Part shown: one piece after another, positions 1,361 through 19,268 of the stretch
How the letters are laid out: each line of letters starts with the position of its first letter
Position numbering within the stretch: the stretch's first letter is position 1
NCBI GenBank assembly: GCA_020438845.1
Contig: JAGQTV010000111.1
Span: 17,854 to 81,853, forward strand
Source of the DNA: Mycobacterium sp.
GTDB lineage: Bacteria > Actinomycetota > Actinomycetes > Mycobacteriales > Mycobacteriaceae
Direction of reading: 5' to 3'
Length of the DNA stretch: 64,000 nucleotides
Position numbers and translations under genes: made by a program
Notes under the pieces: generated by a model
Told to the model about the DNA's origin: nothing
The model's database searches: none
The model's input: only the letters and a program-made list of their open reading frames with translations

Positions 1361-1391
1361 TAGAGGCGAGCCCCTGAGGAAACAGCCATGG

Positions 1392-2579: not shown

Positions 2580-2590
2580 GGAATTGCCTT

Positions 2591-3940: not shown

Positions 3941-4000
3941 CGCCTAGGTTCGATGGGGGTGCCGAGCAAATGCCGGCCAGTTGGGAGTGCGCCGAGAGCG

Positions 4001-4810
4001 ATGGCGAACAAGGCAGCGGATCGGTGGTCTCCGGGAGTCGCATTGGGCAAGGGCGTCTCCGGTCCCATGGAGGCGATCGGCGGCCTGTTCGCAATGACGT
4101 CCGATGTCGTTCGGTTCGCTCTCCAACGGCCGTTCTTCTGGCGGGAATTTCTCGAGCAGGCCTGGTTCGTGGCCCGCGTGTCGATGGTGCCGACGCTGCT
4201 GGTTGCCATTCCCTTCACCGTGCTGGTCAGCTTTACGCTCAACATTCTGCTGCGTGAACTCGGTGCGGCCGACCTGTCCGGGGCCGGTGCGGCGTTCGGT
4301 GCGGTGACGCAGGTCGGCCCGCTGGTGACGGTGCTGATCGTGGCGGGCGCGGGAGCTACCGCGATGTGTGCCGACCTCGGGTCGCGCACCATCCGCGAGG
4401 AGATCGACGCCCTGGAGGTGCTGGGCATCAACCCGGTCCAGCGGCTGGTGACTCCCCGGGTGCTGGCCTCCGGCCTGGTGGCGCTACTGCTCAACTCGCT
4501 GGTGTGCGTCATCGGCATCCTCGGCGGTTACGTGTTCTCGGTCTTCGTCCAGGACGTGAACCCCGGCGCGTTCGCCGCCGGTATCACGCTGCTGACCGGC
4601 GTTCCCGAGCTGATCATCTCGTGCGTGAAGGCCGCCCTGTTCGGGCTGATCGCCGGACTGGTGGCCTGCTACCGCGGCCTGATGATCAGCGGTGGTGGGG
4701 CGAAGGCGGTGGGCAACGCCGTCAACGAGACCGTCGTCTACGCCTTCATGGCCCTGTTCGTGGTCAACGTGGTGGTTACCGCCATCGGCATCCGGATGAC
4801 CGTCAGGTAG
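4001..4810 (+). CDS. yrbEA: YrbEA, MlaE-type permease of the Mce lipid importer
   Basis: First of two paired integral membrane proteins that act as the permease core of Mce importers. From the ATG at 4001 it has 269 residues. An ATG 48 bases upstream is also in frame, and starting at GPMEAIGG would match shorter homologues. The MlaE signature region is clear: GAADLSGAG, GAGATAMCADLGSRTIREEIDALEVLGI and the C-terminal VGNAVNETVVYAF. It closely resembles mycobacterial YrbE4A as I recall that protein. It heads an eight-gene operon, with yrbEB starting four bases after its stop. An open frame reaches back to 2729, but that part is antisense to potA. Confidence 0.93.
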   Translation: MANKAADRWSPGVALGKGVSGPMEAIGGLFAMTSDVVRFALQRPFFWREFLEQAWFVARVSMVPTLLVAIPFTVLVSFTLNILLRELGAADLSGAGAAFGAVTQVGPLVTVLIVAGAGATAMCADLGSRTIREEIDALEVLGINPVQRLVTPRVLASGLVALLLNSLVCVIGILGGYVFSVFVQDVNPGAFAAGITLLTGVPELIISCVKAALFGLIAGLVACYRGLMISGGGAKAVGNAVNETVVYAFMALFVVNVVVTAIGIRMTVR

Positions 4811-4814
4811 CGCG

Positions 4815-5672
4815 ATGGACAACTTGGCAGCCACCCGGGCGGTCTATCCGCGGCTCGCCCGCGCGCTCCTGCGTCCGGTCGTCCTGTTCGGGCGCATCGG
4901 CGACCACACCATGTTCTATGGGTCGGCGCTCAAGGGAATACCGCACGCGATGGTCCACTATCGCAAGGAGATCATCCGGCTGATCGCCGAGATCAGCATG
5001 GGCGCCGGAACGCTGGCGATGATCGGCGGCACCGTGGTGATCGTCGGGTTCCTCACCCTGGCAGCCGGGGGAACTCTGGCGGTTCAGGGCTATTCGTCGC
5101 TGGGCAACATCGGCATCGAGGCGTTGACCGGATTTCTCGCCGCCTTCATCAACGTCCGGATCTCCGCTCCGGTGGTCGCCGGCATCGGTCTGGCCGCCAC
5201 CTTCGGGGCGGGTGTGACCGCTCAACTGGGCGCCATGCGGATCAACGAGGAGATCGACGCCCTGGAGTCGATGGCGATCCGTCCGGTCGAGTACCTGGTA
5301 TCCACCCGGATCGTGGCCGGCATGGCGGCGATCACGCCGCTGTACTCCATCGCGGTCATCTTGTCCTTTTTGGCAAGCCAATTCGTGACCGTGGTGTTGT
5401 TCGGCCAGTCCGCCGGGCTGTACCAGCACTACTTCGACACCTTCCTCAACCCGCTCGACCTGCTGTGGTCGTTCTTCCAGGCCGTGCTGATGGCGCTGAC
5501 GATCCTGCTCATTCACACCTATTTCGGCTTTTTCGCCTCCGGCGGCCCGTCGGGGGTGGGCGTTGCGGTAGGCAACGCGGTGCGGACGTCGCTGATCGTC
5601 GTCGTATCGGTGACTCTGCTTGTCTCACTGGCGATCTACGGATCCAACGGCAACTTCAACCTGGCCGGGTAG
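4815..5672 (+). CDS. yrbEB: YrbEB, MlaE-type permease of the Mce lipid importer
   Basis: Second permease subunit, 285 residues, with five or so hydrophobic segments. The MlaE core is visible: AEISMGAGTLAMIGG, FGAGVTAQLGAMRINEEIDALESMAI, and the tail SGGPSGVGVAVGNAVRTSLI. It should pair with YrbEA beneath the hexameric Mce tube and an Mkl-type ATPase encoded elsewhere; none is in this window. The start is four bases after yrbEA and the stop nine bases before mceA, consistent with one mRNA. Confidence 0.94.
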   Translation: MDNLAATRAVYPRLARALLRPVVLFGRIGDHTMFYGSALKGIPHAMVHYRKEIIRLIAEISMGAGTLAMIGGTVVIVGFLTLAAGGTLAVQGYSSLGNIGIEALTGFLAAFINVRISAPVVAGIGLAATFGAGVTAQLGAMRINEEIDALESMAIRPVEYLVSTRIVAGMAAITPLYSIAVILSFLASQFVTVVLFGQSAGLYQHYFDTFLNPLDLLWSFFQAVLMALTILLIHTYFGFFASGGPSGVGVAVGNAVRTSLIVVVSVTLLVSLAIYGSNGNFNLAG

Positions 5673-5680
5673 CGGGCGAG

Positions 5681-6895
5681 ATGGGCAGCGGGAAAAAGAG
5701 CAGGAGCGACCACGCTGTCGTCCGCCCACTGGCCGGCTTGCTGACCGTCGTCGCGGTGGTGGTGATCGTCGCTGTGGCCGTCGGGCTGTTTCAGGGCAGC
5801 TTCACCAGAACTGTCCCGGTCACCGTCGTCGCCGAGCGTGCCGGTCTGGAGATGAACCCCGACGCCAAGGTCAAACTCCACGGTGCCGAGGTCGGCAAGG
5901 TCGCCACCATCGACGAATTGCCCGACGGCCGTGCCGCCCTGCACCTGGCCATCGACCCGGCTGCACTGTCTGTCATCCCCGCCGACGTCGGTGCTGCGAT
6001 AACCTCATCGACGGTGTTCGGGGCCAAGTTCGTCGAACTGGTACCGCCCGCCAGCCCGTCTTCGGCCCCGCTGGAATCCGGCACGGTGATCACCGGGTCC
6101 GGCCACGTGACCGTCGAACTCAACACCGTTTTCCAGCAACTGGTCGCGGTGTTGTCCACGGTGGATCCGGCCAAGCTCAACCAGACTCTGGGTGCGGTGT
6201 CGACGGCGCTGGGCGGTCGCGGTGCGCAGTTCGGCCAGACCCTGGCCGATCTCGACTCGGCGTTGGTGACGCTGAATCCTGCGCTGGAGAGCCTCAACCA
6301 CGACCTGGGCGTCGCCGCACCGGTTTTCGGAGCGGTCGCCGACGCCGCTCCGGACCTGCTGAGCACAGTGGCCAATGCGACCCGCATCAGTGACACCGTT
6401 GTCGACGAGCAGCGCAACCTCGACGCGTTGCTGCTCAGCGCTATCGGTCTGGCCGACGTCGGCACCGAGGTGCTTTCGGCCAACCGGGCTCCGCTCACCG
6501 AGCTGTTGCACCTGCTGGTGCCCACCACCGACCTCACCAACCAGTACAACCCTGCGATCACCTGCGGCCTCGGCGCTATGCTCCCACTCGCCGACGGCCC
6601 CGGGATACCAGTGCCGGGAGCGGTTCTGCTGCAGGGTTTTTTCCTCGGCCGCGAGCGCTACCGTTATCCGCACAACCTGCCGAAGGTCGCAGCCAAGGGC
6701 GGCCCGCAGTGCACCGACCTTCCCAAAGTGGGCTTCGAACAGCGGCCGCCGTTCGTGATCACCGACATCGGCGCCAATCAGGCCGAGTACGGGAATCAGG
6801 GCATCCTGCTGAATTCCGATGGGCTCAAGCAGGCACTGTTCGGTCCACTCGACGGACCGCCGCGCAATACACCTCAGATGGGCCAGCCCGGATGA
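5681..6895 (+). CDS. mceA: MceA family protein
   Basis: First Mce subunit, 404 residues. It has a basic N-terminus, one membrane anchor (residues 15-38, LLTVVAVVVIVAVAVGL), then the MCE/MlaD domain at about 40-120 (AGLEMNPDAKVKLHGAEVGKV; FGAKFVELVPP), a long helical region, and a C-terminal domain with paired Cys (ITCGLGA; GGPQCTDLPKV). Mce proteins form a periplasm-spanning lipid conduit. The start chosen is the ATG at 5681, nine bases after yrbEB; the open frame extends upstream only in overlap with that gene. The stop overlaps the mceB start as ATGA. Confidence 0.93.
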   Translation: MGSGKKSRSDHAVVRPLAGLLTVVAVVVIVAVAVGLFQGSFTRTVPVTVVAERAGLEMNPDAKVKLHGAEVGKVATIDELPDGRAALHLAIDPAALSVIPADVGAAITSSTVFGAKFVELVPPASPSSAPLESGTVITGSGHVTVELNTVFQQLVAVLSTVDPAKLNQTLGAVSTALGGRGAQFGQTLADLDSALVTLNPALESLNHDLGVAAPVFGAVADAAPDLLSTVANATRISDTVVDEQRNLDALLLSAIGLADVGTEVLSANRAPLTELLHLLVPTTDLTNQYNPAITCGLGAMLPLADGPGIPVPGAVLLQGFFLGRERYRYPHNLPKVAAKGGPQCTDLPKVGFEQRPPFVITDIGANQAEYGNQGILLNSDGLKQALFGPLDGPPRNTPQMGQPG

Positions 6896-7917
6896 GCGCG
6901 ACGACCAAGACCGCCATCAAGGTCGGTGTGTTCATCGTCGCGATGCTGATGGTGACGGTCGCGTTGTTCGCCATCTTCGGGCAGTACCGGGTCGCACCGG
7001 CCAACAAGTACTCCGCCGTGTTCGACGACGTGTCGAGCCTGCGGACCGGTGACTCGGTCCGCGTCGCCGGGGTACGGGTGGGAACGGTCGATCGTGTTGC
7101 GCTGCAACCCGACAACACCGTGCTCGTGGACTTCGGCGCCGACCGGGATATCCGGCTCACTGAGGGCACCAAGGCCGCGGTGCGTTACCTGAACCTGGTC
7201 GGCGACCGATATCTTGAACTGCTCGACAGCCCGGGATCTGCCAAGATTCAGCCGCCGGGATCCCGGATTCCGGCACAGCGGACGTCCGGGGCTCTCGACC
7301 TCGACCTGTTGTTGGGCGGCCTCAAGCCCGTTGTGCAGGGCCTCAATCCGCAGGCCGTCAACGCCCTCACCAACTCACTGATTCAGGTTTTCCAGGGCCA
7401 GGAAACCAACGTCGAGTCGCTGTTCGCCAAGACATCGGCGTTCTCCAACGCGCTGGCCGACAACAGTCAGACGGTCCAGCAGCTGATCGACAACCTCAAC
7501 ACCGTGTTGGCCACCGTCGACAAGGACGGGGCGCAGTTCTCCGGCGCGATCGACCGCCTGGAGAAACTGATCACCGGTTTGGCGGCCGATCGCGACCCGA
7601 TCGGGTCGGCCATCACCGCCCTGGACAACGGCACCGCGTCGTTGACCGAACTGCTCACCGAGGCCCGCGTGCCGCTGTCCGGCACGGTGGATCAACTGGC
7701 CCGGGTTGCCCCGATCCTGGAGCAGGACAAGGCGACTCTCGACCTCGCCCTGCAGAAGGCGCCGAAGAACTACCGCAAACTGGTCCGGCTCGGCTCTTAC
7801 GGCAGCTGGATCAACCAGTACCTGTGCGGGATGTCGGTGCGCGTCACCGACCTTGAAGGCCGAACCGCCTACTTCCCGTGGATCATGCAGCACACCGGGA
7901 GGTGTGCCGAGCCATGA
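6892..7917 (+). CDS. mceB: MceB family protein
   Basis: Second Mce subunit, 341 residues from the ATG at 6892, which overlaps the mceA stop (ATGA) and implies coupled translation. A single N-terminal membrane span (VGVFIVAMLMVTVALFAIFG) is followed by the MCE domain (YSAVFDDVSSLRTGDSVRVAGVRVG in two blocks; VRYLNLVGDRYLEL) and a helical coiled region to the C-terminus (LVRLGSYGSWINQYLCGM), a pattern typical of MceB. The substrate class of the operon (fatty acid, sterol or other) cannot be read from sequence. Confidence 0.93.
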   Translation: MSATTKTAIKVGVFIVAMLMVTVALFAIFGQYRVAPANKYSAVFDDVSSLRTGDSVRVAGVRVGTVDRVALQPDNTVLVDFGADRDIRLTEGTKAAVRYLNLVGDRYLELLDSPGSAKIQPPGSRIPAQRTSGALDLDLLLGGLKPVVQGLNPQAVNALTNSLIQVFQGQETNVESLFAKTSAFSNALADNSQTVQQLIDNLNTVLATVDKDGAQFSGAIDRLEKLITGLAADRDPIGSAITALDNGTASLTELLTEARVPLSGTVDQLARVAPILEQDKATLDLALQKAPKNYRKLVRLGSYGSWINQYLCGMSVRVTDLEGRTAYFPWIMQHTGRCAEP

Positions 7918-9080
7918 TGCACCGCTACCGCGGCCGGAAGCTCATCCGCTCCGGCTTCATCGGCCTCACGTTGATGGTCCTCATCATCAACGTGGGCCTG
8001 CAGCCGCAGGTGCTGTGGCAGATGTTCACCGCCGTCCGACATCAGGCGCTGTTCGCCGACGCCGCCGGACTGACGCAGGGCAACGACGTCAAGGTGTCCG
8101 GGGTGAAAGTGGGTTCGGTGTCCGATGTGTCGCTGCAGCAGGGCAGGGCGCTCGTGACGTTCATGGTCGATGCCGCGGTTCGGCTCGGCAACGACACCAC
8201 CGCCCATATCCGTACCGGCACGCTGTTGGGTCAGCGGGTGCTCACCCTGGAATCCAACGGCGTCGGCAGGTGGCCGGTATCGGAGATCCTGCCCCTGTCC
8301 CGCACCGGCTCGCCGTATACGTTGACCGACGCCCTGGGGGAGCTCGCCGGGAATGCCCGCGACACCGACACCGCGGCGCTGCGGGAGTCGCTGAACACCC
8401 TGTCGGCAACCATAGACCGGGTCGCACCGCAGCTGTCGCCGACCTTCGACGGTCTTAGCCGGATTTCCGAGGCGCTCAACGAGCGCAACGCATCGCTGTC
8501 CGGGCTACTCAGCAGCGCTTCGCGGGTCACCGAGATCCTGGCCCAGCGCAGTGCACAGGTCAACACTTTGATCCTCAACGCCAACGACCTGCTCGGTGTG
8601 CTCGAGCAGCGCCGGTACGCCATCGTGAACCTGCTGGCCAACACCTCCGCGTTGGCCAAGCAGTTGAGCGGTCTGGTCGCCGACAACGAAGCCGATCTTG
8701 CCCCCGCGCTGGAGAAGCTCAATGCGGTCAGTGAGATTCTGCAGAAGAACAACGACAACATCGGCAAGGCGATGGCCGGCCTGGCGAAGTTCCAGGTGAC
8801 CCAGGCCGAGGCAGTCAACAACGGCTATTACTACAACGCGTTCGTCGCCAACCTCCTCCCGGCGCAGACACTCCAGCCGTTCCTGGATTACATCTTCGGC
8901 TTCCGTCGCGGCACCGACGCCGGTCAGCCGCCGGACAACGCCGGCCCGAGGGCGGAGTTCCCCTTCCCGTACAACGGGATACCGGCTCCTAACGAACGGT
9001 GGGGTCCCGCCCCGGGCCCAGAGAATTCGGGCCCAGAGAATTCCGGCCCAGAGAATTTCGGCACTGCGGGGCCGCCATGA
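7914..9080 (+). CDS. mceC: MceC family protein with a repeated C-terminal tail
   Basis: Third Mce subunit, 388 residues from ATG 7914 (a second ATG follows directly), overlapping the mceB stop. It has an N-terminal membrane anchor (FIGLTLMVLIINVGL), the MCE domain (LTQGNDVKVSGVKVGSV; AHIRTGTLLGQRVLTL), a long helical part, then the conserved end FLDYIFGFRRG. The tail is proline- and glycine-rich and contains three tandem PENSG/F units encoded by a 15-base direct repeat at 9014-9058. The open frame begins earlier at 7878, but that part overlaps mceB. Confidence 0.93.
   Translation: MMHRYRGRKLIRSGFIGLTLMVLIINVGLQPQVLWQMFTAVRHQALFADAAGLTQGNDVKVSGVKVGSVSDVSLQQGRALVTFMVDAAVRLGNDTTAHIRTGTLLGQRVLTLESNGVGRWPVSEILPLSRTGSPYTLTDALGELAGNARDTDTAALRESLNTLSATIDRVAPQLSPTFDGLSRISEALNERNASLSGLLSSASRVTEILAQRSAQVNTLILNANDLLGVLEQRRYAIVNLLANTSALAKQLSGLVADNEADLAPALEKLNAVSEILQKNNDNIGKAMAGLAKFQVTQAEAVNNGYYYNAFVANLLPAQTLQPFLDYIFGFRRGTDAGQPPDNAGPRAEFPFPYNGIPAPNERWGPAPGPENSGPENSGPENFGTAGPP
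9014..9058 (+). repeat. Three tandem copies of a 15-base repeat in mceC
   Basis: The unit gggcccagagaattc occurs at 9014-9028 and 9029-9043, and as cggcccagagaattt at 9044-9058. It is in frame and encodes repeated P-E-N-S/F-G. The array sits in the low-complexity tail just before the mceC stop, so copy number probably varies without harming the fold. Confidence 0.9.
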
Positions 9081-10534
9081 TGACCCACAGAAACCGTGTG
9101 GCCGCCTTGGCTGCTGTGCTTGTGGCACTACTGACCGCCGGTGTGCTACTCGTGGTTCGCGACACTGTCCACAAGCCCACGAGGATCACCGCCTACTTCA
9201 CCAGTGCCACCTCGATCTACCCCGGTGACGACGTCCGAGTGGCGGGAGTAAAGGTCGGCAGCATCACCAACATCCAGGCGCAGGGCACCAAGGCCCGGAT
9301 GACTCTGGTGGTGAAGCCCGGCATTCCAGTCCCCGCCGACGCTCGCGCCGTCGTCGTCGCCCAGAATCTTGTGGGCGCCCGGTACGTCCAGCTGGCACCC
9401 GCCTTCGGTGCGGACGGGAAAACCAATGGGCCGACGATGCGCGACGGTGCGGTGATCGACGTCGACCGCACTGCGGTTCCGGTGGAGTGGGACGAGGTGA
9501 AGGCCCAGTTATACCGACTGGCAAGCGATCTCGGGCCGGGAGCCGACGCGTCGAGCTCGTCGCTGGGCCGATTGATCGACAGCGCCGCAACCGCCGTCGA
9601 CGGCAACGGGAACAAGCTGCGGCAGACCATCAAGCAGCTCTCGGAATTGAGTCGCATCCTCGCCGAAGGCAGCGGCAACATCGTCGACGTCATCAAGAAC
9701 TTGCAGACCTTCGTAACAGTCCTGCGGGACAGCAACATCCAGATCGTCGAGTTTCAGAACCGGCTGGCCACCGTGTCCAGCGTGCTCGACGGCAGCAGGT
9801 CGGATCTCGACGCGGCGCTGAACAACCTGTCGGTGGCCGTCGTCGACGTCAAGCGTTTCGTTGCCGGGAGCCGCAACCAAACCGCAGAGAGCATGGAACG
9901 ACTGGCCGATGTTTCCCGGAATCTCGTCGATAACCAGATGGCACTGAAGAACCTGTTACACGTTGCGCCCAACGCGATCGGCAATGCCTACAACATCTAT
10001 AACCCCGACATCCAAAGCGCACTGGGGGCATTCGCGCTCGCGAACTTCTCCAACCCGCTGCAGGTGGTGTGTGCGGCGATCGGAGCCGTGGAGAATTCCA
10101 CGGCGTCGGAGACCAGCAAACTGTGCTCGCAGTACCTCGGCCCCGCCCTGCGGCTGCTGAACTTCAACTACCTACCGGTTCCGTTCAACGCCTACCTGGG
10201 CAAGTCGCCGAGTCCGTGGAACCTGATCTACTCCGAACCGCAGCTGGCACCGGGTGGTGGCGGTACGCCGCCGTCGAACGAAATGCCGCCGCCCGTGTCG
10301 GCCTACACCGGGCTCAACGGAGACGTACCAGGCCCGGCAGGCTGGGGTCAGCCGGGCAGTGAACAGCACGGCGCCTACGCACCCGACGGACTGCCCGCCG
10401 ACCCGCAGCCCGCACTGTTCCCAGGTGCTCCAATCCCGCCGGGGGTGGTCCACGGCCCCGCAGCGGTCGGGCCCGGTCCTGCCGGACCGACAACGGTCGA
10501 GGGCATGCTGCTTCCGGCAGAAGGGGCGCCGTGA
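9077..10534 (+). CDS. mceD: MceD family protein
   Basis: Fourth Mce subunit, 485 residues from the ATG at 9077, overlapping the mceC stop (ATGATGA arrangement). It has an N-terminal anchor (VAALAAVLVALLTAGVLLVV), the MCE domain (SIYPGDDVRVAGVKVGSI; VVAQNLVGARYVQLAP), a helical domain (about residues 150-330) and a C-terminal block with Cys (LQVVCAAIGAVE; TSKLCSQYLGPALR). The last 80 or so residues are proline/glycine-rich, as is common in MceD. Upstream in-frame codons from 8999 lie inside mceC and are not taken as coding. Confidence 0.93.
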   Translation: MMTHRNRVAALAAVLVALLTAGVLLVVRDTVHKPTRITAYFTSATSIYPGDDVRVAGVKVGSITNIQAQGTKARMTLVVKPGIPVPADARAVVVAQNLVGARYVQLAPAFGADGKTNGPTMRDGAVIDVDRTAVPVEWDEVKAQLYRLASDLGPGADASSSSLGRLIDSAATAVDGNGNKLRQTIKQLSELSRILAEGSGNIVDVIKNLQTFVTVLRDSNIQIVEFQNRLATVSSVLDGSRSDLDAALNNLSVAVVDVKRFVAGSRNQTAESMERLADVSRNLVDNQMALKNLLHVAPNAIGNAYNIYNPDIQSALGAFALANFSNPLQVVCAAIGAVENSTASETSKLCSQYLGPALRLLNFNYLPVPFNAYLGKSPSPWNLIYSEPQLAPGGGGTPPSNEMPPPVSAYTGLNGDVPGPAGWGQPGSEQHGAYAPDGLPADPQPALFPGAPIPPGVVHGPAAVGPGPAGPTTVEGMLLPAEGAP

Positions 10535-11724
10535 TGTCCAGGGTGCACGGGATTCGGCGGGGTACTCTGCTGGCGAGGATTCTGGTCCCTGCTGTCCTCG
10601 TGGCTTCCAATGCGACCGGCTGCGCCTTCGGGGGGTTGAACTCACTACCACTGCCTGGCGCGGTGGGCCGCGGTCCGAATGCCACTCGATACCATGTCGA
10701 GCTGGCGAATGTCGCTACGCTGGAACCGAATTCACCGGTCATGGTTCGGGATGTCGTGGTCGGCAGCGTTGAGTCGATGAAGGTGCGGGACTGGCACGCC
10801 GACGTTGAGATCTCGGTTAAGCCGGGCGTGACGATCCCTGCCAACGCGGTGGCCACCGTCGGGCAGACGAGCCTTCTCGGTTCGATGCACCTGGCGCTCA
10901 ACCCGCCGCTGGGCCAGCCACCGAAGGGGCTGCTGGCCCCCGGAGCCACCCTGGGACTCAACGAGACCTCCACCTATCCCACCACCGAGCAGACATTGTC
11001 GGCTTTGTCGGTGGTGATCAACGGCGGGGGAGTCGGGCGACTGGGCGACATCATCACCGAACTCAACGCGGCCTTCGACGGCCATGCGGGCCAGATCCGC
11101 GACCTGCTGACCCGTCTGAATGACTTCGTGGGCATACTCGCCACCCAACGTGACAGCATCAACGCCTCGGTGAACTCGCTGAATCGGCTGGCCGGCACCT
11201 TCGCCGGTCAGCAGGACGTGCTCAGTCGTGCACTCGAGCGGATCCCTCCCGCGCTCGACGTGCTCATTGCCGAACGGCCAACCCTGACAACGGCGCTGGA
11301 GAAGCTGGGCGACTTCAGCGTTGTGGCCACCGGGCTGGTCAACGATACGCGGGCCGACCTGGTTCGGGACCTGCGAAACCTGGAGCCCACGCTGCGGGCG
11401 TTGGCCGACGTCGGCCCCGAACTCGACCGTGCGCTGGCGTACTTCACCGCGTTCCCGTACGGCCAGGCGACGATCGACCGCGCCATCAGGGGCGACTACC
11501 TCAACCAGTACATCGTCTTCGACTTCACCATCCCGCGGCTGAAGAGAACTCTGTTCCTCGGTACCAGCTGGGGACAGGAGGGTGCGAAACTCGTTCCAGC
11601 GCCGGGTGATCCGTGGTATGCCACCTACACCTACGATCCGTTGAACGCCCCGTTCAGTGCGCCACCTGCCGCAGTGGCGCCAATCCCCCCGCTCACGGAT
11701 CCGGCTCCGAGGGGCGGCAACTGA
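10534..11724 (+). CDS. mceE: MceE family lipoprotein (LprK/LprN type)
   Basis: Fifth Mce subunit, and the one normally lipidated. The start is ATG 10534, overlapping the mceD stop (TGATG); a GTG one codon earlier is also possible. A signal peptide ends in a Cys in a lipobox-like context (NATGCAFGG, about residue 31). The MCE domain follows (LEPNSPVMVRDVVVGSVESM; TSLLGSMHLALNPP), then a helical region and the conserved end LNQYIVFDFTIPRLKRT. About 396 residues. Lipidation probably anchors the tube end to the envelope, as inferred from family knowledge. Confidence 0.93.
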   Translation: MSRVHGIRRGTLLARILVPAVLVASNATGCAFGGLNSLPLPGAVGRGPNATRYHVELANVATLEPNSPVMVRDVVVGSVESMKVRDWHADVEISVKPGVTIPANAVATVGQTSLLGSMHLALNPPLGQPPKGLLAPGATLGLNETSTYPTTEQTLSALSVVINGGGVGRLGDIITELNAAFDGHAGQIRDLLTRLNDFVGILATQRDSINASVNSLNRLAGTFAGQQDVLSRALERIPPALDVLIAERPTLTTALEKLGDFSVVATGLVNDTRADLVRDLRNLEPTLRALADVGPELDRALAYFTAFPYGQATIDRAIRGDYLNQYIVFDFTIPRLKRTLFLGTSWGQEGAKLVPAPGDPWYATYTYDPLNAPFSAPPAAVAPIPPLTDPAPRGGN

Positions 11725-13319
11725 TGCTGACGCGCTTCGTCCGAACCCAGTTAGCCATCTTCACCGTTGCCTCCATCGTCGGCATCGCCGCGATGGCGAT
11801 GGTCTATCTGCAGTTGCCGACCCTGCTGGGGATCGGCCGGATGACGGTGACGCTGGAACTGCCCAGAACCGGAGGGCTCTACCGCTTCGCCAACGTCACC
11901 TACCGCGGCGTGCAGATCGGCAAGGTGACCGATGTGCACGCCACCCGTTCGGGTGCCGAAGCCACACTGTCGCTGGCCGAATCACCGAAGATCCCGGCCG
12001 ATCTGCTGGCCAGCGTGCGCAGCGTTTCGGCGGTGGGGGAGCAGTTCGTCGACCTGCTGCCGCGCACCGACAACGGCCCATACCTCAGCGACGGTGCTGT
12101 GATCGGCGTTGCGGACACGGCTGTCCCACAGCAGGTCGGGCCGATGCTCGACCAGGTCAGCGCGCTGCTGGACACCATCCCCAAGGACAAGCTCGCCCGG
12201 TTGCTGGATGAATCGTTCACCGGGCTCAACGGGTCCGGTGACGAGCTCGGCGCCCTGCTGGACTCCTCGACGACGTTGTCACACGACTTCAAGTCCGTGG
12301 CGGAGCAGGTTCGTGCCCTGCTCGACGACAGCCGCCCTCTGCTGGACGGCCAACTTGCCTCCGCCGATGCGTTGCGCACCTGGGCGCGCAGCCTCGCCGG
12401 CGTCACCGGGCAGATCACTGCCGACGATGCGGCGGTTCGTGGAGTGCTGCGAAACGGACCCGGCGCCGTCGACGAAGCAGATCAGCTTCTTCAACAGGTG
12501 AAGCCGACCCTGCCGGTGCTGCTGGCCAACCTGACGACCGTCGGCCAGATCGCCGTCACCTACCACGCGTCGCTGGAACAACTGCTGGTCTTGCTGCCGC
12601 CGTACGTCGGTTCCGTTCAGGCCGTGGGTCTTCCGAACAATAACCCGGTCGGGTTCACCCAGGGCGACTTCACCTTGACCATCGGTGACCCGCCGGCCTG
12701 CACGGTCGGTTTCCTACCGCCCTCCTCCTGGCGGTCGCCGACGGATCTGTCCGACATCGACACTCCCGACGGCCTGTACTGCAAGCTTCCGCAGGACTCC
12801 CCGATCGCGGTGCGCGGCGCCCGCAACTACCCCTGCATGGGCCAGCCCGGGAAACGGGCCCCTACCGTGGAGATCTGCGAGAGCGACAAACCCTATGAAC
12901 CGTTGGCCATGCGCCAGCACGCACTCGGCCCCTACCCGATCGACCCGAGCCTACTCGCCCAAGGCATCCCGCCGGACGATCGAATCACTTTCCGCGAGCA
13001 CATTTTCGGGCCGCTGGAAGGTACTGCGGGACCGCCGCCCGGCGGTGACACGGCGATTGAACACGCTGCCGGCGGTCCGGCGATCGGGCCGGCCGCCGGC
13101 GCCACCCCCGCCGAGGCGCCGACTCCGCCGTCCCCGGACACGCCGCCGCTGGTAACCCCGAGTGGCTTCCACTCCGGGGCAGGCCCGTCAGTGGCGATTG
13201 CCACCTACGATCCCAAAACCGGGCAGTTCGCCACCCCGGACGGCGGCGTGGCGCGGCAGACCGATGTTGTCGCGCCCGTCGGTGAGCGGTCCTGGACCGA
13301 CCTGTTGCCGACCGGCTGA
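11724..13319 (+). CDS. mceF: MceF family protein
   Basis: Sixth and last Mce subunit, 531 residues from ATG 11724, overlapping the mceE stop (TGATG). N-terminal anchor (LAIFTVASIVGIAAMAMVYL), MCE domain (LYRFANVTYRGVQIGKVTDV; VRSVSAVGEQFVDLLP), helical region, then a conserved Cys-containing end (PPACTVGFLPPSSWRSP; DGLYCKLPQDSP; RNYPCMGQPGKRAPTVEIC). The final 100 residues are Ala/Pro/Gly-rich. The operon ends here, convergent with the next gene after seven bases; no mce-associated (mas) genes follow. Confidence 0.93.
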   Translation: MLTRFVRTQLAIFTVASIVGIAAMAMVYLQLPTLLGIGRMTVTLELPRTGGLYRFANVTYRGVQIGKVTDVHATRSGAEATLSLAESPKIPADLLASVRSVSAVGEQFVDLLPRTDNGPYLSDGAVIGVADTAVPQQVGPMLDQVSALLDTIPKDKLARLLDESFTGLNGSGDELGALLDSSTTLSHDFKSVAEQVRALLDDSRPLLDGQLASADALRTWARSLAGVTGQITADDAAVRGVLRNGPGAVDEADQLLQQVKPTLPVLLANLTTVGQIAVTYHASLEQLLVLLPPYVGSVQAVGLPNNNPVGFTQGDFTLTIGDPPACTVGFLPPSSWRSPTDLSDIDTPDGLYCKLPQDSPIAVRGARNYPCMGQPGKRAPTVEICESDKPYEPLAMRQHALGPYPIDPSLLAQGIPPDDRITFREHIFGPLEGTAGPPPGGDTAIEHAAGGPAIGPAAGATPAEAPTPPSPDTPPLVTPSGFHSGAGPSVAIATYDPKTGQFATPDGGVARQTDVVAPVGERSWTDLLPTG

Positions 13320-13985: not shown

Positions 13986-16181
13986 ATGACCCAGCTGTCA
14001 GAACATGACGGAGCGACAACGGACCCTTCGGCTTCGGCGGCCAAACGCTCCAGATTTCCGATCGGCATTCCCGGTCGAGGTTTCCTCACCCGCATCAGCA
14101 TCCAGTCCAAACTCATCCTGATGCTGGCTTTGTGCACCATTCTGGCCGCGGCGATCGTCGGCGGAATTTCCTACCAGACCGGCCGTACCTCGTTGCGCGA
14201 GGCCGCTTTCAACCGGCTGACCGAGATTCGCGAGGCACAGAAACGCGCCATGATTTCTCAGCTGACCGACCTGAGAAACGCCTTGGTGACCTACACCAAC
14301 GGTTCCATGACCAAAGATGCCTTGCGCGAATTCAGTGCCGGCTTCGACCAGTTGTCGACTGCCACGATCACACCGGAGATGACCAAGGCGATCGACTCCT
14401 ACTACGACCTGTTCACCAAACAAACCGAGAAGTACAGCGGTGTCCGCCTGGACACCGGGGCACTGCTGCCCACGTCCAATGCCGAGCGTTATCTGCAGGC
14501 GTATTACAGCGCGCGACTGCCCACCAACGACGTCGCGATCGCAATGGATGACGCGCACGACGGCAGCGCCTGGTCTGCAGCCAACGCGAAATATCAGGGC
14601 TTCTATCGGGAGATCGTGACGAGGTTCGGTTTCGAGGACGCCCTGCTCATCGACCGTGCCGGCAACGTGGTCTATAGCGCCTTCAAGAACACCGACCTGG
14701 GCACCAACATCCTGAACGGTCCTTACGACGGCTCCAAATTGCGTGGCGCCTATCTCGAGGCGATGTCGAGCAACAGAGCCGACCGAGTGGCCGTCACCGA
14801 CTTCGAGTTCTACCAGCCCGCCAACATGGCTCCGACGGCCTGGTTGGTCGCGCCCGTTCCGCCCGACGGGAAGCCCGAGGGTGTTCTGGCCCTTCAATTT
14901 CCGATCACCAAGATCAACAAGGTGATGACGTTCGACAGACAGTGGCGCGAGGCCGGAATGGGAACGACCGGCGAGACGTTTTTGGCTGGCGAAGACTTCC
15001 TGATGCGGTCGGATTCCCGGATGTTCCTGGAAGATCCGCAGGAGTACCGCCAGAAAGTCATCGCCGCGGGCACTCCGCCCGATATTCCCGACCTTGCGAT
15101 CCGCCAGGGCGGCACCACCCTGGTTCAACCCGTCTCGGAGCGTGTGGGAAGACCGGCTCAAGAGGGGCACTCAGGCACTCTGATCACCAAAGACTATCTC
15201 GGTGAGGAGTGCCTACAGGCCTACGCGCCGATCGGCGAGCACGTCGGACTGCACTGGTCGATCATCGCCAAGATCAGCGCCAAGGAAGCGTTCGCCAGCG
15301 AAGCCACCTTCGCCCGGGTCGTGGTTCTGGCTACTACCGGGATAATTTTCGCGGTCTGTCTGCTAGCGGTCATTCTCGCCCAGGTTTTCCTGCGGCCGAT
15401 CCGCCGCCTCGAAACGGGCGTCCAGCGAATCAGCGCCGGAGACTACACGGTGGCGATTCCGGTGGAGACCCGCGACGAGATCGGCGACTTGACCGTGATG
15501 TTCAACGAGATGAGTGGCAGTCTGTCCGCCAAGGAAGACCTGCTCAATGAACAACGTGGTCAGATCAGGAACTTGCTCAACTCTTTTATGCCCGCAGCAA
15601 TCGCGGACAAACTGCGCCGCGGCGAGGAAGTCGGCGCCCGGGAACACCCCAATGTCACAGTCATTTACGCAACCGTCCTCGGTTTGGACCGGATTCAGGC
15701 GCAACTCGATTCCGGCGAGGCACTGAGCATCACCAACGAGATCAATCGTCAATTCGAGGCTGCGGCAGCGGACTACGACATCGACCGGATCCGTCCGGTG
15801 CGAAACGGATACCTCGGTAGTTGTGGGCTCCTTGTTCCGCGGTTGGACAATGCTCGACGGGTCGTCGACTTTGCGCGTGAGTGTGAGCGAATCGTCGAGC
15901 GGGTCAACGGTGATTCAGGACTGAACCTCGCGCTGTGCGCCGGGATCGATACCGGAAAGGTCAGCAGCGGTCTGATCGGACATCCGTCGACAGTGTTCGA
16001 TCTCTGGGGAAGCGCAGTAAACCTGGCCCACCGGATCAAAACCGGAGTGCCGGAATCCGGGGTCTACGTCTCTTCGCGGGTGCATGGCACCCTCGCGGAC
16101 ACAACGCCGTTCGTCTCTGCCGGGACGATCCCAGTTGACGGAGTCGACGAACCGATCTGGCGACTGCTGGAGCAGCAGTAA
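13986..16181 (+). CDS. Receptor-type class III cyclase-like protein, catalytic metal site lost
   Basis: 731 residues from ATG 13986 (good ribosome site AAGGGA). Order: cytoplasmic N-terminus, membrane span about 42-62, large exported sensor domain to about 440 (Cache-like by architecture), second span 445-468, HAMP linker (RPIRRLETGVQRISAGDY; ETRDEIGDLTVMFNEM), then a class III cyclase fold from about 557. The two metal-binding Asp are replaced: Thr563 in YATVLG and Asn607 in VRNGY; the purine-selecting Lys is Arg603. Asp672, Asn679 and Arg683 (FDLWG, NLAHR) remain. It is probably not an active cyclase. Its stop overlaps the MscS gene; the pair matches Rv2435c-Rv2434c as I recall them. Confidence 0.88.
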   Translation: MTQLSEHDGATTDPSASAAKRSRFPIGIPGRGFLTRISIQSKLILMLALCTILAAAIVGGISYQTGRTSLREAAFNRLTEIREAQKRAMISQLTDLRNALVTYTNGSMTKDALREFSAGFDQLSTATITPEMTKAIDSYYDLFTKQTEKYSGVRLDTGALLPTSNAERYLQAYYSARLPTNDVAIAMDDAHDGSAWSAANAKYQGFYREIVTRFGFEDALLIDRAGNVVYSAFKNTDLGTNILNGPYDGSKLRGAYLEAMSSNRADRVAVTDFEFYQPANMAPTAWLVAPVPPDGKPEGVLALQFPITKINKVMTFDRQWREAGMGTTGETFLAGEDFLMRSDSRMFLEDPQEYRQKVIAAGTPPDIPDLAIRQGGTTLVQPVSERVGRPAQEGHSGTLITKDYLGEECLQAYAPIGEHVGLHWSIIAKISAKEAFASEATFARVVVLATTGIIFAVCLLAVILAQVFLRPIRRLETGVQRISAGDYTVAIPVETRDEIGDLTVMFNEMSGSLSAKEDLLNEQRGQIRNLLNSFMPAAIADKLRRGEEVGAREHPNVTVIYATVLGLDRIQAQLDSGEALSITNEINRQFEAAAADYDIDRIRPVRNGYLGSCGLLVPRLDNARRVVDFARECERIVERVNGDSGLNLALCAGIDTGKVSSGLIGHPSTVFDLWGSAVNLAHRIKTGVPESGVYVSSRVHGTLADTTPFVSAGTIPVDGVDEPIWRLLEQQ

Positions 16182-17674
16182 TGGCCAGCGTGCTCACCGC
16201 CCCCTGGTTCTACTGGGCCGTCGGCATAGCCCTCGGTTTCCCACTGGTGTTGATCCTGACCACCGAATGGCAACAAGCCCTACGCCGTCGAGGCAGTCCA
16301 CTGCTGCGACCCGTCACGATGCTGCGCAATCTGCTGGTGCCCCTGGGTGCGTTGCTGATGGCCATGGTCGGGGCCACTCAGATGCCGTTTGCATCCATGC
16401 CGGTCCGCTTGGTCGGCACGGTGGTGGCCGTACTGGTACTCATGCTTCTGCTCGCAGGCATCCGGGCCTCGGTGTTTTCCAATGCCCCCGAAGACAGTTG
16501 GCGACATCGCATCCCGGCCATCTTTCTCGACGTCAGCAGGTTCGGACTGATCGCGATCGGCACCGGACTGATCCTGGCCTACATTTGGGGCGCCCACATC
16601 GGCGGGTTGTTCACCGCGCTGGGTATCGGGTCGATCGTGATCGGTCTTACGCTTCAGAACTCCGTCGGTCAGATCATCTCCGGGCTGCTCATGCTCTTCG
16701 AGCAGCCGTTCCGGATCGGGGACTACATCCAGACCGACAAGGCACAAGGGCGAGTCACGGAGGTCAACTGGCGGGCAGTTCACGTCAAGACCGCCACCGG
16801 CACGCAGATCATGCCGAATTCCGTGCTCGCCGCAGCCGCCTTCACCAATCTGAGTCGGCCTGCCGGAGAGTTCGCGATCCGGGTGACCAGTGTGTTCGCT
16901 ATTGAGGATCGGCCGGACCAGGTGTGCGACATGTTGGCTCGGGTGGCATCCCAGGTGCCCGAGTGCCACCCGGACTTGGCCCCGATCGCCGTTCCGATGG
17001 GAACAATGCAGTACCGCACCAAGATCCCGCTGCGCTCACCGGCAGATGACAGCGATGCGGAAGCAACCTTCCTGCGCTGGATTTGGTATGCCGCCCGGCG
17101 GGAGGGCTTGCACCTGGACGAGGCCGAGGATTCCTTCTCCGACCCGGAGTCGGTTGCCGCGGCGATCCGGACGGTCGTCGCACCGACCCTGCAGATGACC
17201 CCCCAGCAGCAGAAAGCCATGATTCCGCATGCGGTCATTCAACGTTTCGGCGCCGGGGAACTCGTTCTCGAAGATGGCATTGTGCCCGATGCCATGTCGT
17301 TCATTCTGGCAGGTGAGGTGCGATTGACTGCTGACGTCGAAGACGGAACCCGCGCCGTGGTGGGGACCATCGAGCAGGGATCCTTCTTCGGGCAGAGCAC
17401 TCTTACCCGCCAACCGGTTACCGGTTCGATGTTCGCACTGACCGAATTGACAGTCGTGCGCGTTCAGCGCGAGGCGATCGAGAAGGTCTTGCATGCCAAC
17501 CCGGTTCTATTGCAAGAGTTCGGCCGTGCCATCGACGAACGCCGCAAGCGGGTTCAGATGGTGCTTGCCGACGCCGAATCCGACACCGACACCGACCCCG
17601 CCACGGCGAGCACGCAATCGGCCAGCCAAGCGGGCGATGCAGCCGTGAGCTCCGCCGTCGACTCCGGGTCTTAA
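16181..17674 (+). CDS. MscS-family mechanosensitive channel with C-terminal cyclic-nucleotide-binding-like domain
   Basis: 497 residues; the ATG shares its A with the TAA of the cyclase-like gene. The N-terminal half has three or four membrane spans and the MscS pore/beta region (GLTLQNSVGQIISGLLMLFEQPF; IGDYIQTDKAQGRVTEVNWR; IMPNSVLAAAAFTNLSR). The C-terminal half (about 340-460) is a CNB fold (FGAGELVLEDG; GSFFGQSTL). Its phosphate cassette is altered: the key Glu is Gln405 and the key Arg position after Pro412 is Val413. It may gate ion or solute release under osmotic stress, tuned by the partner protein rather than by classic cAMP binding (inference). Confidence 0.9.
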   Translation: MASVLTAPWFYWAVGIALGFPLVLILTTEWQQALRRRGSPLLRPVTMLRNLLVPLGALLMAMVGATQMPFASMPVRLVGTVVAVLVLMLLLAGIRASVFSNAPEDSWRHRIPAIFLDVSRFGLIAIGTGLILAYIWGAHIGGLFTALGIGSIVIGLTLQNSVGQIISGLLMLFEQPFRIGDYIQTDKAQGRVTEVNWRAVHVKTATGTQIMPNSVLAAAAFTNLSRPAGEFAIRVTSVFAIEDRPDQVCDMLARVASQVPECHPDLAPIAVPMGTMQYRTKIPLRSPADDSDAEATFLRWIWYAARREGLHLDEAEDSFSDPESVAAAIRTVVAPTLQMTPQQQKAMIPHAVIQRFGAGELVLEDGIVPDAMSFILAGEVRLTADVEDGTRAVVGTIEQGSFFGQSTLTRQPVTGSMFALTELTVVRVQREAIEKVLHANPVLLQEFGRAIDERRKRVQMVLADAESDTDTDPATASTQSASQAGDAAVSSAVDSGS

Positions 17675-17697
17675 CGGGGCGATTGGCTGGGACCGGT

Positions 17698-17732
17698 CAT
17701 GGGGACTTCATGGGGGACTTCATGGGGGACAC
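17698..17732 (+). repeat. Short tandem repeat upstream of the hydrolase gene
   Basis: Three near-identical units of catgggggactt (11, 12 and 12 bases, starting 17698, 17709 and 17721) lie 30 to 60 bases before the chosen ATG at 17761. Each unit contains an in-frame ATG, so the repeat could encode a Met-Gly-Asp-Phe N-terminal extension or form part of the leader. Confidence 0.85.
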
Positions 17733-17760
17733 TGACAAGAGACCCCTGGGGAGGTATGTG

Positions 17761-18429
17761 ATGACCAGTAATGAACCGTTGCGGGACGATGAGGTCATTG
17801 TCGAGGTGGCGGGAGCGATAGTCGGAGGGCGGCTGACCGTTCCGCAGGAGCCTCGCGGCATCGTCGTGTTCGCACACGGCAGCGGCAGCAGCAGACACAG
17901 CCCCCGTAATCGTTTCGTGGCGGAGGTTCTGCAGTCGGCGGGGTTGGCAACCCTGCTGTTCGATCTGCTCACACCGGAAGAAGAGGCCAACCGCGCCAAC
18001 GTCTTTGACATCGGGCTACTGGCCGACCGGCTGGTAGAGGTCACCCTGTGGCTGCGCTCAGCCCGGGATGCCGCCGGACTTCCAGTGGGCTATTTCGGCG
18101 CGAGCACAGGCGCCGGGGCGGCACTGCGGGCTGCCGCCGATCCCCGAGTGGACCTTTTCGCTGTGGTGTCCCGCGGTGGCCGGCCGGATTTGGCGGGCAA
18201 CTTCCTCCCTCGTGTACAGGCTCCGACGTTGCTGATCGTCGGAAGCCGCGATCAGACCGTGCTTGACCTCAACCGGCAGGCCGCCGCGGCGATGACGGCG
18301 CCGTGCCAGATCGCGGTTGTACCGGGTGCCACCCACTTGTTCGAGGAACCCGGCACGCTGGAGCAGGTTGCGGTGCTGGCCCGCAAGTGGTTCACCAACC
18401 ACCTCACCCCAATTCCGGTGGAACCCTGA
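17761..18429 (+). CDS. Alpha/beta hydrolase, dienelactone-hydrolase-like
   Basis: 222 residues from ATG 17761, which has a good ribosome site (GGGAGG). Alpha/beta hydrolase fold: oxyanion region FAHGSGSSRHSPRN (about 40-53), nucleophile elbow YFGASTGAGAAL with Ser, acid region VGSRDQTVLDLN and His in GATHLFEE. This pattern fits small cytosolic hydrolases often found alone or fused to phosphoribosyltransferases in mycobacteria. Substrate unknown. In-frame ATGs upstream, inside a tandem repeat, could add about 26 residues. The stop overlaps the start of the rhodanese gene by four bases, so they are probably coupled. Confidence 0.85.
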   Translation: MTSNEPLRDDEVIVEVAGAIVGGRLTVPQEPRGIVVFAHGSGSSRHSPRNRFVAEVLQSAGLATLLFDLLTPEEEANRANVFDIGLLADRLVEVTLWLRSARDAAGLPVGYFGASTGAGAALRAAADPRVDLFAVVSRGGRPDLAGNFLPRVQAPTLLIVGSRDQTVLDLNRQAAAAMTAPCQIAVVPGATHLFEEPGTLEQVAVLARKWFTNHLTPIPVEP

Positions 18430-19268
18430 TGCGCGAGGACGTTCTGGTCAGCGCGGAAGAATTGCTCAAAATGCCGCAGATGCCCGCGCCCGCGATCCTT
18501 GACGTGCGCTGGCGCCTGGACCAGCCCGACGGTCAGGCCGCCTACGTGGCCGGTCACATTCCAGGTGCGGTCTACGTGTCACTCGAGGACGAATTGAGCG
18601 ACCACTCCCGGCCCGGGCTGGGACGCCACCCGCTGCCGTCGGGCGCCGATCTGCAGGCCGCCGCCCGTCGTTGGGGGCTGAGCAACCATCGGCCGGTCGT
18701 CGTCTACGACGACTGGAACCGGGCGGGGTCGTCGCGGGCGTGGTGGGTACTGGCTTCGGCGGGTCTGGACGTGCGGATCCTTAACGGCGGCCTCGCCGCG
18801 TGGACCGCCGCGGGGGGTGCGCTGGAAACCGGCCAGGTGACACCAGAGCCCGGCGACGTGACCATCTCGCATCCCGATCTTTATCGCGGTGCTCTGAGGA
18901 CCGTCACAGCTGAAGAGGTCGCCCACGGGGCGGTTTCGGCACTGCTGGACGCGCGGGCACCCGAGCGATTCCGCGGCGAGGTCGAGCCGGTCGATCCGGT
19001 GGCTGGGCATATTCCGGGCGCGCGAAACCTGCCGAGTCTGGCCCTACTGGACGACGACGGCACTTTCCGGGACACCAGCGCGATCGCCGCGTTGGTTGCC
19101 GACCGCAGCGTGACCGCCTCAGACGTCGTCGGTGTGTACTGCGGTTCGGGAGTCACTGCGTCCGTGGTACTGGCCGCGCTCAGCTCCATCGGAATCGAAG
19201 CAGCACTTTTTCCGGGGTCTTGGTCGCAGTGGAGCGCCGAGGCGGGTCGGCCGGTTGCCACCGGGTGA
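18429..19268 (+). CDS. Two-domain sulfurtransferase (rhodanese family)
   Basis: 279 residues, ATG overlapping the previous stop. Two tandem rhodanese domains. The first (about 20-130; ILDVRW, GHIPGAVYV) has Asp at the position of the catalytic Cys (VVVYDDWN) and is structural. The second (about 145-275; LLDARAPERFRGE, GHIPGARNLP) carries the active Cys loop CGSGVT. It transfers sulfur from thiosulfate or mercaptopyruvate to an acceptor; the CGSGVT loop is of the mercaptopyruvate-sulfurtransferase-like type. Length and layout match mycobacterial SseA/SseB proteins. Confidence 0.93.
   Translation: MREDVLVSAEELLKMPQMPAPAILDVRWRLDQPDGQAAYVAGHIPGAVYVSLEDELSDHSRPGLGRHPLPSGADLQAAARRWGLSNHRPVVVYDDWNRAGSSRAWWVLASAGLDVRILNGGLAAWTAAGGALETGQVTPEPGDVTISHPDLYRGALRTVTAEEVAHGAVSALLDARAPERFRGEVEPVDPVAGHIPGARNLPSLALLDDDGTFRDTSAIAALVADRSVTASDVVGVYCGSGVTASVVLAALSSIGIEAALFPGSWSQWSAEAGRPVATG

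What the first reader, a model, noticed from the sequence alone, without database searches (positions are those of the whole stretch)
13986..17674. Degenerate cyclase and degenerate CNB channel are joined in one overlapping operon
The stop of one and the start of the other share a base, and both have lost the residues needed for the same signal. Joint loss suggests that the pair has evolved a direct, cyclic-nucleotide-independent link between an extracytoplasmic sensor and an MscS-type channel. The gene order is as in Rv2435c-Rv2434c (recalled, not checked), so the module would be widespread and largely unexplained.
Basis: inference. Interest (0 to 1): 0.7.

Follow-up and report, generated by a model that had tools for sequence, protein, structure and literature searches.

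The report
Dead cyclase paired with MscS channel
A membrane sensor built on a cyclase that has lost residues needed to make its messenger lies beside a membrane channel whose messenger pocket is also altered, in the mycobacteria examined, so the two probably work together in some other way.

Summary
Window 13986-16181 encodes a sensor-HAMP-class III cyclase-like protein; its stop (TAATG) shares a base with the start of an MscS channel with a cyclic-nucleotide-binding (CNB) domain (16181-17674). Both pockets are degenerate, family-wide: 0 of 85 cyclases (0 of 112 rows with 9 repeats) keep both metal Asp plus catalytic Asn and Arg; 0 of 86 channels keep the CNB Glu. The genes are inseparable: the same 28 of 301 family genomes hold both; 244 of 297 genus genomes hold the channel. 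Loci outside the class have cyclase-channel-cyclase, also degenerate. Both genes are under purifying selection, and two altered pocket stretches are unusually conserved. Three unlinked cyclase relatives are canonical. Against: nine unlinked plasmid MscS-CNB channels also lack the CNB Arg, five also the Glu, so the channel-side loss is not specific to the pair; co-variation gave no clear signal. Verdict: a constrained, inseparable module that probably does not use cAMP between its parts. Direct contact is the leading, unproven link; a new ligand is the main rival.

The parts
13986..16181 (+). Sensor-HAMP-pseudo-cyclase gene (P0001, 731 aa, stop included)
   Evidence: orthologs
14601..15017 (+). 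Extracytoplasmic dCache-like sensor core (residues 206-344 by Pfam; in the AlphaFold model the region between the two membrane helices runs to about residue 435)
   Evidence: dCache_1 28.2 bits, below cut-off 45, in this protein; 29 of 39 aligned members match at E 1e-3, some of the 39 being partial sequences
15375..15527 (+). HAMP domain (residues 464-514), followed by the coiled linker to the cyclase domain
   Evidence: 39 of 39 members; the stretch 441-548 has the lowest dN/dS of the gene in all four comparisons
15636..16145 (+). Class III cyclase domain (residues 551-720), degenerate
   Evidence: Foldseek match to Rv1625c 7yz9, TMt 0.89
15672..15674 (+). T563 in place of metal Asp 1
15792..15806 (+). 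R603 in place of the substrate Lys and N607 in place of metal Asp 2
   Evidence: hairpin 602-614 at 98th percentile of conservation within 517-727
15999..16034 (+). D672, N679, R683: substrate and transition-state residues that are kept in the window
16179..16183 (+). TAATG: stop of the first gene and start of the second share one base
16181..17674 (+). MscS-type channel with C-terminal CNB domain (P0002, 497 aa, stop included)
16658..16858 (+). MscS beta domain (residues 160-226)
   Evidence: 46 of 46 members
17240..17497 (+). CNB domain (residues 354-439), degenerate
   Evidence: 46 of 46 members; Foldseek matches to GlxR and SthK
17390..17413 (+). Core of the former phosphate-binding cassette (404-411, GQSTLTRQ): Q405 in place of Glu, R410 conserved in 85 of 86

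Best explanation
The two genes make one signalling unit that no longer uses cAMP between its parts. An extracytoplasmic dCache-like sensor passes a conformational change through HAMP and the coiled linker to a dimer of pseudo-cyclase domains. The pseudo-cyclase, being catalytically dead or nearly so, acts as a protein output domain: it touches the cytoplasmic part of the MscS-type channel, most likely the CNB domain, whose former cAMP cassette has become a conserved docking or allosteric surface, and so biases channel opening in response to an outside signal. Shown here: overlapping genes, co-inheritance, loss of both sets of residues across the family, purifying selection, conservation of altered pocket stretches. 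Inferred: loss of activity and of cAMP binding, physical contact, and the direction of signalling.
For: Adjacent wherever readable: 84 of 85 orthologous channels have the cyclase directly upstream, 76 of these 84 with an overlap by mapped start, and the last (L023) is a contig end with the cyclase C-terminus beside it; of 28 further ones 27, the last (L134) again with the cyclase C-terminus at the cut end. The same 28 of 301 family genomes hold both, 32 copies each, none with one alone at the cut-offs used (the weak MscS-only hit G065 set aside). Trees agree: r 0.96, 53 of 82 splits shared, 42 of the 50 cyclase splits with support 0.9 also in the channel tree. 0 of 85 keep the four catalytic residues and 0 of 86 the CNB Glu. 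Three pairs in this one genome, all degenerate in both partners, beside 11 other cyclase domains that keep both metal Asp. dN/dS against four relatives 0.13-0.23 for each whole gene. The altered cassette core 404-411 is the most conserved 8-residue window of residues 341-440, and the cyclase hairpin 602-614 is at the 98th percentile. Three unlinked relatives of the same architecture are canonical cyclases. No third gene is conserved (at most 13 of 30 loci).
Against: Nine unlinked plasmid MscS-CNB channels also lack the cassette Arg, and five of the nine lack the Glu, so a degenerate CNB does not need a degenerate cyclase beside it. Co-variation: top score 7.15 against 7.20 (finer clade shuffle) and 6.97 (coarser), with 12 shuffles each; the share of high scores exceeded only the coarser shuffle, as left-over kinship would give (103 pairs, effective 55). 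The joint loss may be one ancestral event. A sevenfold channel (recalled for MscS) and a dimeric receptor differ in symmetry. Metal Asp 1 is kept in 68 of 85 and the catalytic Asn in 48 of 85. The first metal stretch is of average conservation (51st percentile), the cassette tail 412-419 is low (26th), and the CNB domain is the least conserved of the three channel parts compared. No complex could be predicted and nothing was measured.
Confidence: 0.4

Rival explanations
1. The pockets were retuned, not abandoned: the CNB domain (and perhaps the pseudo-cyclase) binds another small molecule, such as a nucleoside or another nucleotide, as the CNB domains of trypanosomatid PKA do. The cyclase-like protein would then sense outside signals and the channel a cytosolic metabolite.
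For: The former cassette core is strongly conserved with new residues (R410 in 85 of 86, L408 in 86 of 86). Trypanosomatid PKA is a known case of CNB domains with the cassette Arg replaced that bind purine nucleosides (PMC10959531, passages), and a structure of that protein is among the Foldseek matches. Unlinked MscS-CNB channels are degenerate too, as a channel-side change of ligand would predict.
Against: In the trypanosomatid pocket a Glu pair (E311/E435) matters: inosine potency falls 1556-fold without it; no Glu stands at cassette positions 404-411 of the 86 channels except at 411, where 26 have one. It does not by itself explain why the degenerate cyclase is the constant neighbour.
Confidence: 0.3
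2. The cyclase-like protein is still a working half-enzyme: the window copy keeps D672, N679 and R683 and would give activity as a heterodimer with a cyclase that supplies the metals; the product acts elsewhere.
For: The window pattern (metals lost, Asn and Arg kept) resembles the C2 half of mammalian cyclases (alignment; the reading is recalled). 10 of 85 rows keep both Asn and Arg, and 3 of 85 keep both metal Asp. Other cyclases exist in the genome.
Against: Most orthologs have lost something in both halves: Asp 2 in 81 of 85, Arg in 62 of 85, Lys in 85 of 85. The channel next door lacks the CNB Glu in 86 of 86, so the partner would not be expected to read the product.
Confidence: 0.13
3. 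The proteins do not touch; the operon only co-regulates an outside sensor and an independent channel, and both pockets are vestigial.
For: No clear co-variation signal. MscS-CNB channels lose the cAMP residues also where unlinked. Channel tail and receptor N-terminus evolve fast.
Against: dN/dS of the cyclase domain 0.15-0.23 and of the CNB domain 0.19-0.27, with altered pocket stretches among the most conserved, and co-inheritance without exception in 301 genomes.
Confidence: 0.15

Closest known systems
Rv2435c / Rv2434c of Mycobacterium tuberculosis
   Same: Rv2434c is listed as a (conserved) transmembrane protein (PMC11205783, PMC11278869, passages).
   Different: The residues of that pair were not compared here. 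The 2004 survey of actinobacterial cyclases (PMC2447327) holds both names by the search index, but only its abstract and part of its reference list were seen.
bCNG channels (MscS superfamily with CNB domain; Caldwell 2010 and Malcolm 2012 seen only as titles in a reference list; architecture recalled)
   Same: MscS beta domain plus C-terminal CNB domain.
   Different: Cassette Glu and Arg lost and a degenerate cyclase always beside it. Loss of the residues alone is not distinctive: of nine plasmid MscS-CNB relatives four keep the Glu and none shows the Arg.
dCache-HAMP class III cyclases of Sinorhizobium/Ensifer plasmids (L113-L115)
   Same: Same domain order, 30-33% identity over 93-96% of the protein.
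   Different: All six active-site residues canonical and no channel frame within the about 10 kb fetched.
Rv1625c and mammalian membrane adenylyl cyclases
   Same: Among the closest solved relatives of the cyclase domain by sequence and fold.
   Different: Those are active enzymes (recalled); this one lacks the metal site.
Trypanosomatid PKA regulatory subunit
   Same: CNB domains with the cassette Arg replaced that keep an allosteric role.
   Different: They bind nucleosides with the help of Glu residues not seen here; a eukaryotic kinase regulator, not a channel.

Membership tests
Class III nucleotidyl cyclase (fold family) | Guanylate_cyc domain by profile and fold | tested here: met
   76.1 bits against cut-off 21.9; 7yz9 TMt 0.89
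Class III nucleotidyl cyclase (active enzyme) | Two metal-binding Asp | tested here: not met
   T563 and N607
Class III nucleotidyl cyclase (active enzyme) | Catalytic Asn and Arg | tested here: met
   N679, R683 in the window; in the family Arg is lost in 62 of 85 and Asn in 37 of 85
Class III nucleotidyl cyclase (active enzyme) | Measured cyclase activity | not testable with these tools
   Needs an assay
bCNG / MscS-CNB channel | MscS beta domain and C-terminal CNB domain in one protein | tested here: met
bCNG / MscS-CNB channel | CNB cassette Glu and Arg that bind cyclic nucleotide | tested here: not met
   Q405 and V413; Glu 0 of 86, Arg 0 of 86 at column 413 and 2 of 86 at column 412
bCNG / MscS-CNB channel | Gating by cyclic nucleotide | not testable with these tools
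   Needs electrophysiology
dCache_1 sensor | Pfam dCache_1 above gathering score | tested here: not met
   28.2 bits of 45 for the window protein; 29 of 39 members match at E 1e-3, so a divergent dCache is likely
HAMP-linked receptor | HAMP after the second membrane helix | tested here: met
   51.9 bits; 39 of 39 members
Rv2435c-Rv2434c type pair | Orthology by sequence | not tested

The most novel reading that the evidence does not exclude
A receptor built on a dead cyclase gates an MscS channel by direct contact: the former cAMP pocket of the channel is now the docking site of the former cAMP maker, a producer-reader pair that gave up the diffusible messenger and kept the wiring as a protein complex. 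The cyclase-channel-cyclase loci found outside the class would be the same complex with a two-part receptor.
Probability: 0.27. Interest if true: 0.85.

Novelty: new variant of a known kind. Interest (0 to 1): 0.55.

Why it matters
Mycobacteria hold many cyclases, and a part of them has no settled role (recalled). If this pair is a channel with its own private sensor and no messenger, then a share of the 'cAMP network' is not about cAMP, and a gene pair whose channel is present in about four of five sampled genomes of the genus becomes a candidate for signal-controlled osmotic or solute release. It would also be a case in which a second-messenger pathway collapsed into a protein complex while its gene order survived.

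Tried and rejected
Inter-protein co-variation (mutual information with average-product correction; cyclase residues 470-727 against channel 100-455; 103 pairs, effective 55): top score 7.15, shuffles within 39 clades 7.20 on average, within 16 clades 6.97; share of scores above 4 was 0.00182 against 0.00184 and 0.00138. Search for fused cyclase-channel proteins: none among 84 cyclase and 85 channel open frames. Search for a third conserved gene in 30 named loci: none (the window's own neighbours were not in that set). More cyclase-channel-cyclase loci: 2 of 148 genomes of the class of G580 match at E 1e-25, both already known. Viral contigs: no match to the cyclase patterns. Promoter and terminator scan: nothing.

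Plasmid controls: 9 of 252 channel records and 5 of 270 cyclase-search records were fetched. The first three channels read all kept the Glu; after six more it is 4 of 9 with Glu and 0 of 9 with Arg, with no cyclase-like frame near any.

Rows dropped before the count of 85 cyclases and 86 channels: L033-L035, L039 and L041 as repeats, L036, L037 and L065 as non-orthologs, L076 (an unused stretch), the phylum-search loci L077-L085, L101 and L102 as repeats, L090-L100 as weak matches not examined, and L023 for the cyclase only. L106-L109 (L086-L089) were counted apart. In one search, 9 of the 28 added loci repeat earlier ones and L134 has no readable cyclase domain.

Full report
What is there. 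The window holds two genes in one overlapping unit. P0001 (13986-16181) reads short cytoplasmic tail, membrane helix, extracytoplasmic sensor, membrane helix, HAMP, coiled linker, class III cyclase domain; P0002 (16181-17674) reads membrane helices, MscS pore and beta domain, alpha/beta domain, CNB domain, tail. The overlap is TAATG. Pfam gives Guanylate_cyc, HAMP, MS_channel_2nd and cNMP_binding above cut-off, and dCache_1 below cut-off. AlphaFold models (mean pLDDT 82.9 and 80.6; pTM only 0.53 and 0.56) match MscS and YnaI channels and CNB proteins (GlxR, SthK) for P0002, and Rv1625c and guanylate cyclases for the cyclase domain of P0001.

Degeneracy. Against adenylyl cyclase 5 and canonical relatives, the window cyclase has T563 and N607 for the two metal Asp and R603 for the Lys, while D672, N679 and R683 stand. 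The channel has Q405 for the cassette Glu and V413 at the Arg column. Over 85 cyclases with a readable domain: Asp 1 is D in 68, E in 13, T in 2, G in 1 and N in 1; Lys is R in 74 and H in 11; Asp 2 is N in 64 and D in 4; Asn is N in 48; Arg is Q in 57 and R in 23; no row keeps Asp 1, Asp 2, Asn and Arg together; 3 rows keep both metal Asp and 10 keep both Asn and Arg. Over 86 channels the Glu column is Q 45, L 20, V 9, S 4, I 4, H 2, M 2, and Arg stands at column 413 in none and at column 412 in 2. With 28 more loci (27 with a cyclase domain, 9 of the 28 repeats) the totals are 0 of 112 rows with the four residues and 0 of 112 with the Glu. In the same genome the 11 other cyclase domains keep both metal Asp in 11 of 11 and all four residues in 9 of 11. 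So the cyclase loss belongs to this family, not to the organism.

One unit. Of 85 orthologous channels, 84 have the cyclase immediately upstream, 76 of them with a short overlap by mapped start; the exception lies at a contig end with the cyclase C-terminus beside it. Of the 28 loci added later 27 do, and the last again has the cyclase C-terminus at its cut end. In 301 genomes of the family, channel and cyclase orthologs occur in the same 28, 32 copies each. In the genus 244 of 297 genomes have the channel at E 1e-60. The genome of the window has three pairs, and one named relative, M. simulans, has two in tandem (L025). The two trees agree closely (r 0.96; three conflicts between splits with support of 0.95 or more, all against one channel group). 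No other gene is conserved beside them in 30 named loci.

Depth. A phylum sample of 346 genomes adds full pairs in another family of the class (L103-L105; 16 of 120 genomes of that family hold the channel at E 1e-40) and, outside the class, loci with the channel between two sensor-HAMP-cyclase-like genes (L106-L108; L109 is cut on its 5' side). Of the seven cyclase-like genes there, all seven lack Asp 1, Asn and Arg; four show an Asp at the Asp 2 column and three keep the Lys. Their four CNB cassettes lack the Glu; one (L108) has an Arg-Thr-Ala triplet near where the Arg belongs.

Controls outside, for and against. Plasmid searches found the same sensor-HAMP-cyclase architecture in rhizobia (19 records with 80% or more of the query covered; 3 read) with every active-site residue canonical and no channel frame nearby. 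So the cyclase side is degenerate where linked and canonical where unlinked, in the few cases read. The channel side does not show this: of 252 plasmid records that match P0002, nine were read; none has a cyclase-like frame near it, four keep the Glu and none shows the canonical Arg. MscS-CNB channels thus seem prone to lose cAMP residues without any partner. The sensor also sits on chemotaxis receptors of Salinivibrio and Azospirillum (by annotation) and Vibrio (by eye).

Constraint. dN/dS against the four nearest relatives is 0.13-0.23 for the first gene and 0.14-0.21 for the second; cyclase domain 0.15-0.23, CNB 0.19-0.27, stretch 441-548 with HAMP 0.07-0.11. Synonymous distances are about 0.9-1.1, so the ratios are rough. 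Within residues 341-440 the altered cassette core 404-411 is the most conserved window of its size, and the cyclase hairpin with former Lys and Asp 2 is at the 98th percentile; but the first metal stretch is average (51st), the cassette tail is low (26th), and the CNB domain is the least conserved of the three channel parts compared. Pockets that merely decayed should not contain the best kept stretches of their domains.

Mechanism. Best reading: sensor, HAMP and pseudo-cyclase form a receptor whose output is contact with the channel. Shown: linkage, co-inheritance, constraint, loss of residues. Inferred: loss of activity, contact, gating. Against: no clear co-variation signal (a weak test), symmetry mismatch, possibly one ancestral loss, and degenerate CNB domains in unlinked channels. 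Main rival: a changed ligand, as in trypanosomatid PKA, whose CNB domains bind nucleosides (PMC10959531, passages). A half-active heterodimer remains possible for the window copy, which keeps the Asn and Arg.

Known and new. MscS-CNB channels (bCNG) and sensor-HAMP-cyclases are known kinds. What seems new is the fixed pairing of degenerate partners across a family and beyond it in the phylum, and the three-gene form. In the nine paper searches listed in Tried and rejected no listing showed that joint loss described, but the 2004 survey that names both tuberculosis genes was seen only as abstract and part of its references.

Noticed in passing
The second cyclase-like gene has almost no active-site motif left.
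   Followed up: partly
L116, L117 and other plasmid records: The same sensor and HAMP region is joined to chemotaxis receptors, so the outside signal may be a small molecule shared with chemotaxis.
   Followed up: no
G000:C16:7945-11501 and G000:C70:4513-8093 (L071, L072): Two further paralogous pairs in the window's own genome, both degenerate in both partners.
   Followed up: yes
L025 2800-10012: Two complete pairs in tandem in Mycobacterium simulans.
   Followed up: partly
L110-L112, L180-L185: Unlinked MscS-CNB channels on plasmids have varied, often non-canonical CNB cassettes (Glu in 4 of 9, Arg in 0 of 9); the nucleotide gating of this architecture may be less general than its name suggests.
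   Followed up: partly
window about 3800-13319: A complete-looking yrbE/mce operon lies upstream of the pair; named by eye from the translations, no family search was run.
   Followed up: no
window 485-3940, minus strand: Genes that look like a polyamine-type ABC transporter (permease, binding lipoprotein, ATPase), by eye.
   Followed up: no
window 17683-19268: Downstream genes look like an alpha/beta hydrolase and a rhodanese-type sulfurtransferase, by eye; whether they lie near other pairs was not tested.
   Followed up: no
P0002 residue R410 (window 17408-17410): An Arg in the altered cassette is kept in 85 of 86 channels; its role is unknown and it is a good first target for a loss-of-function change.
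   Followed up: no
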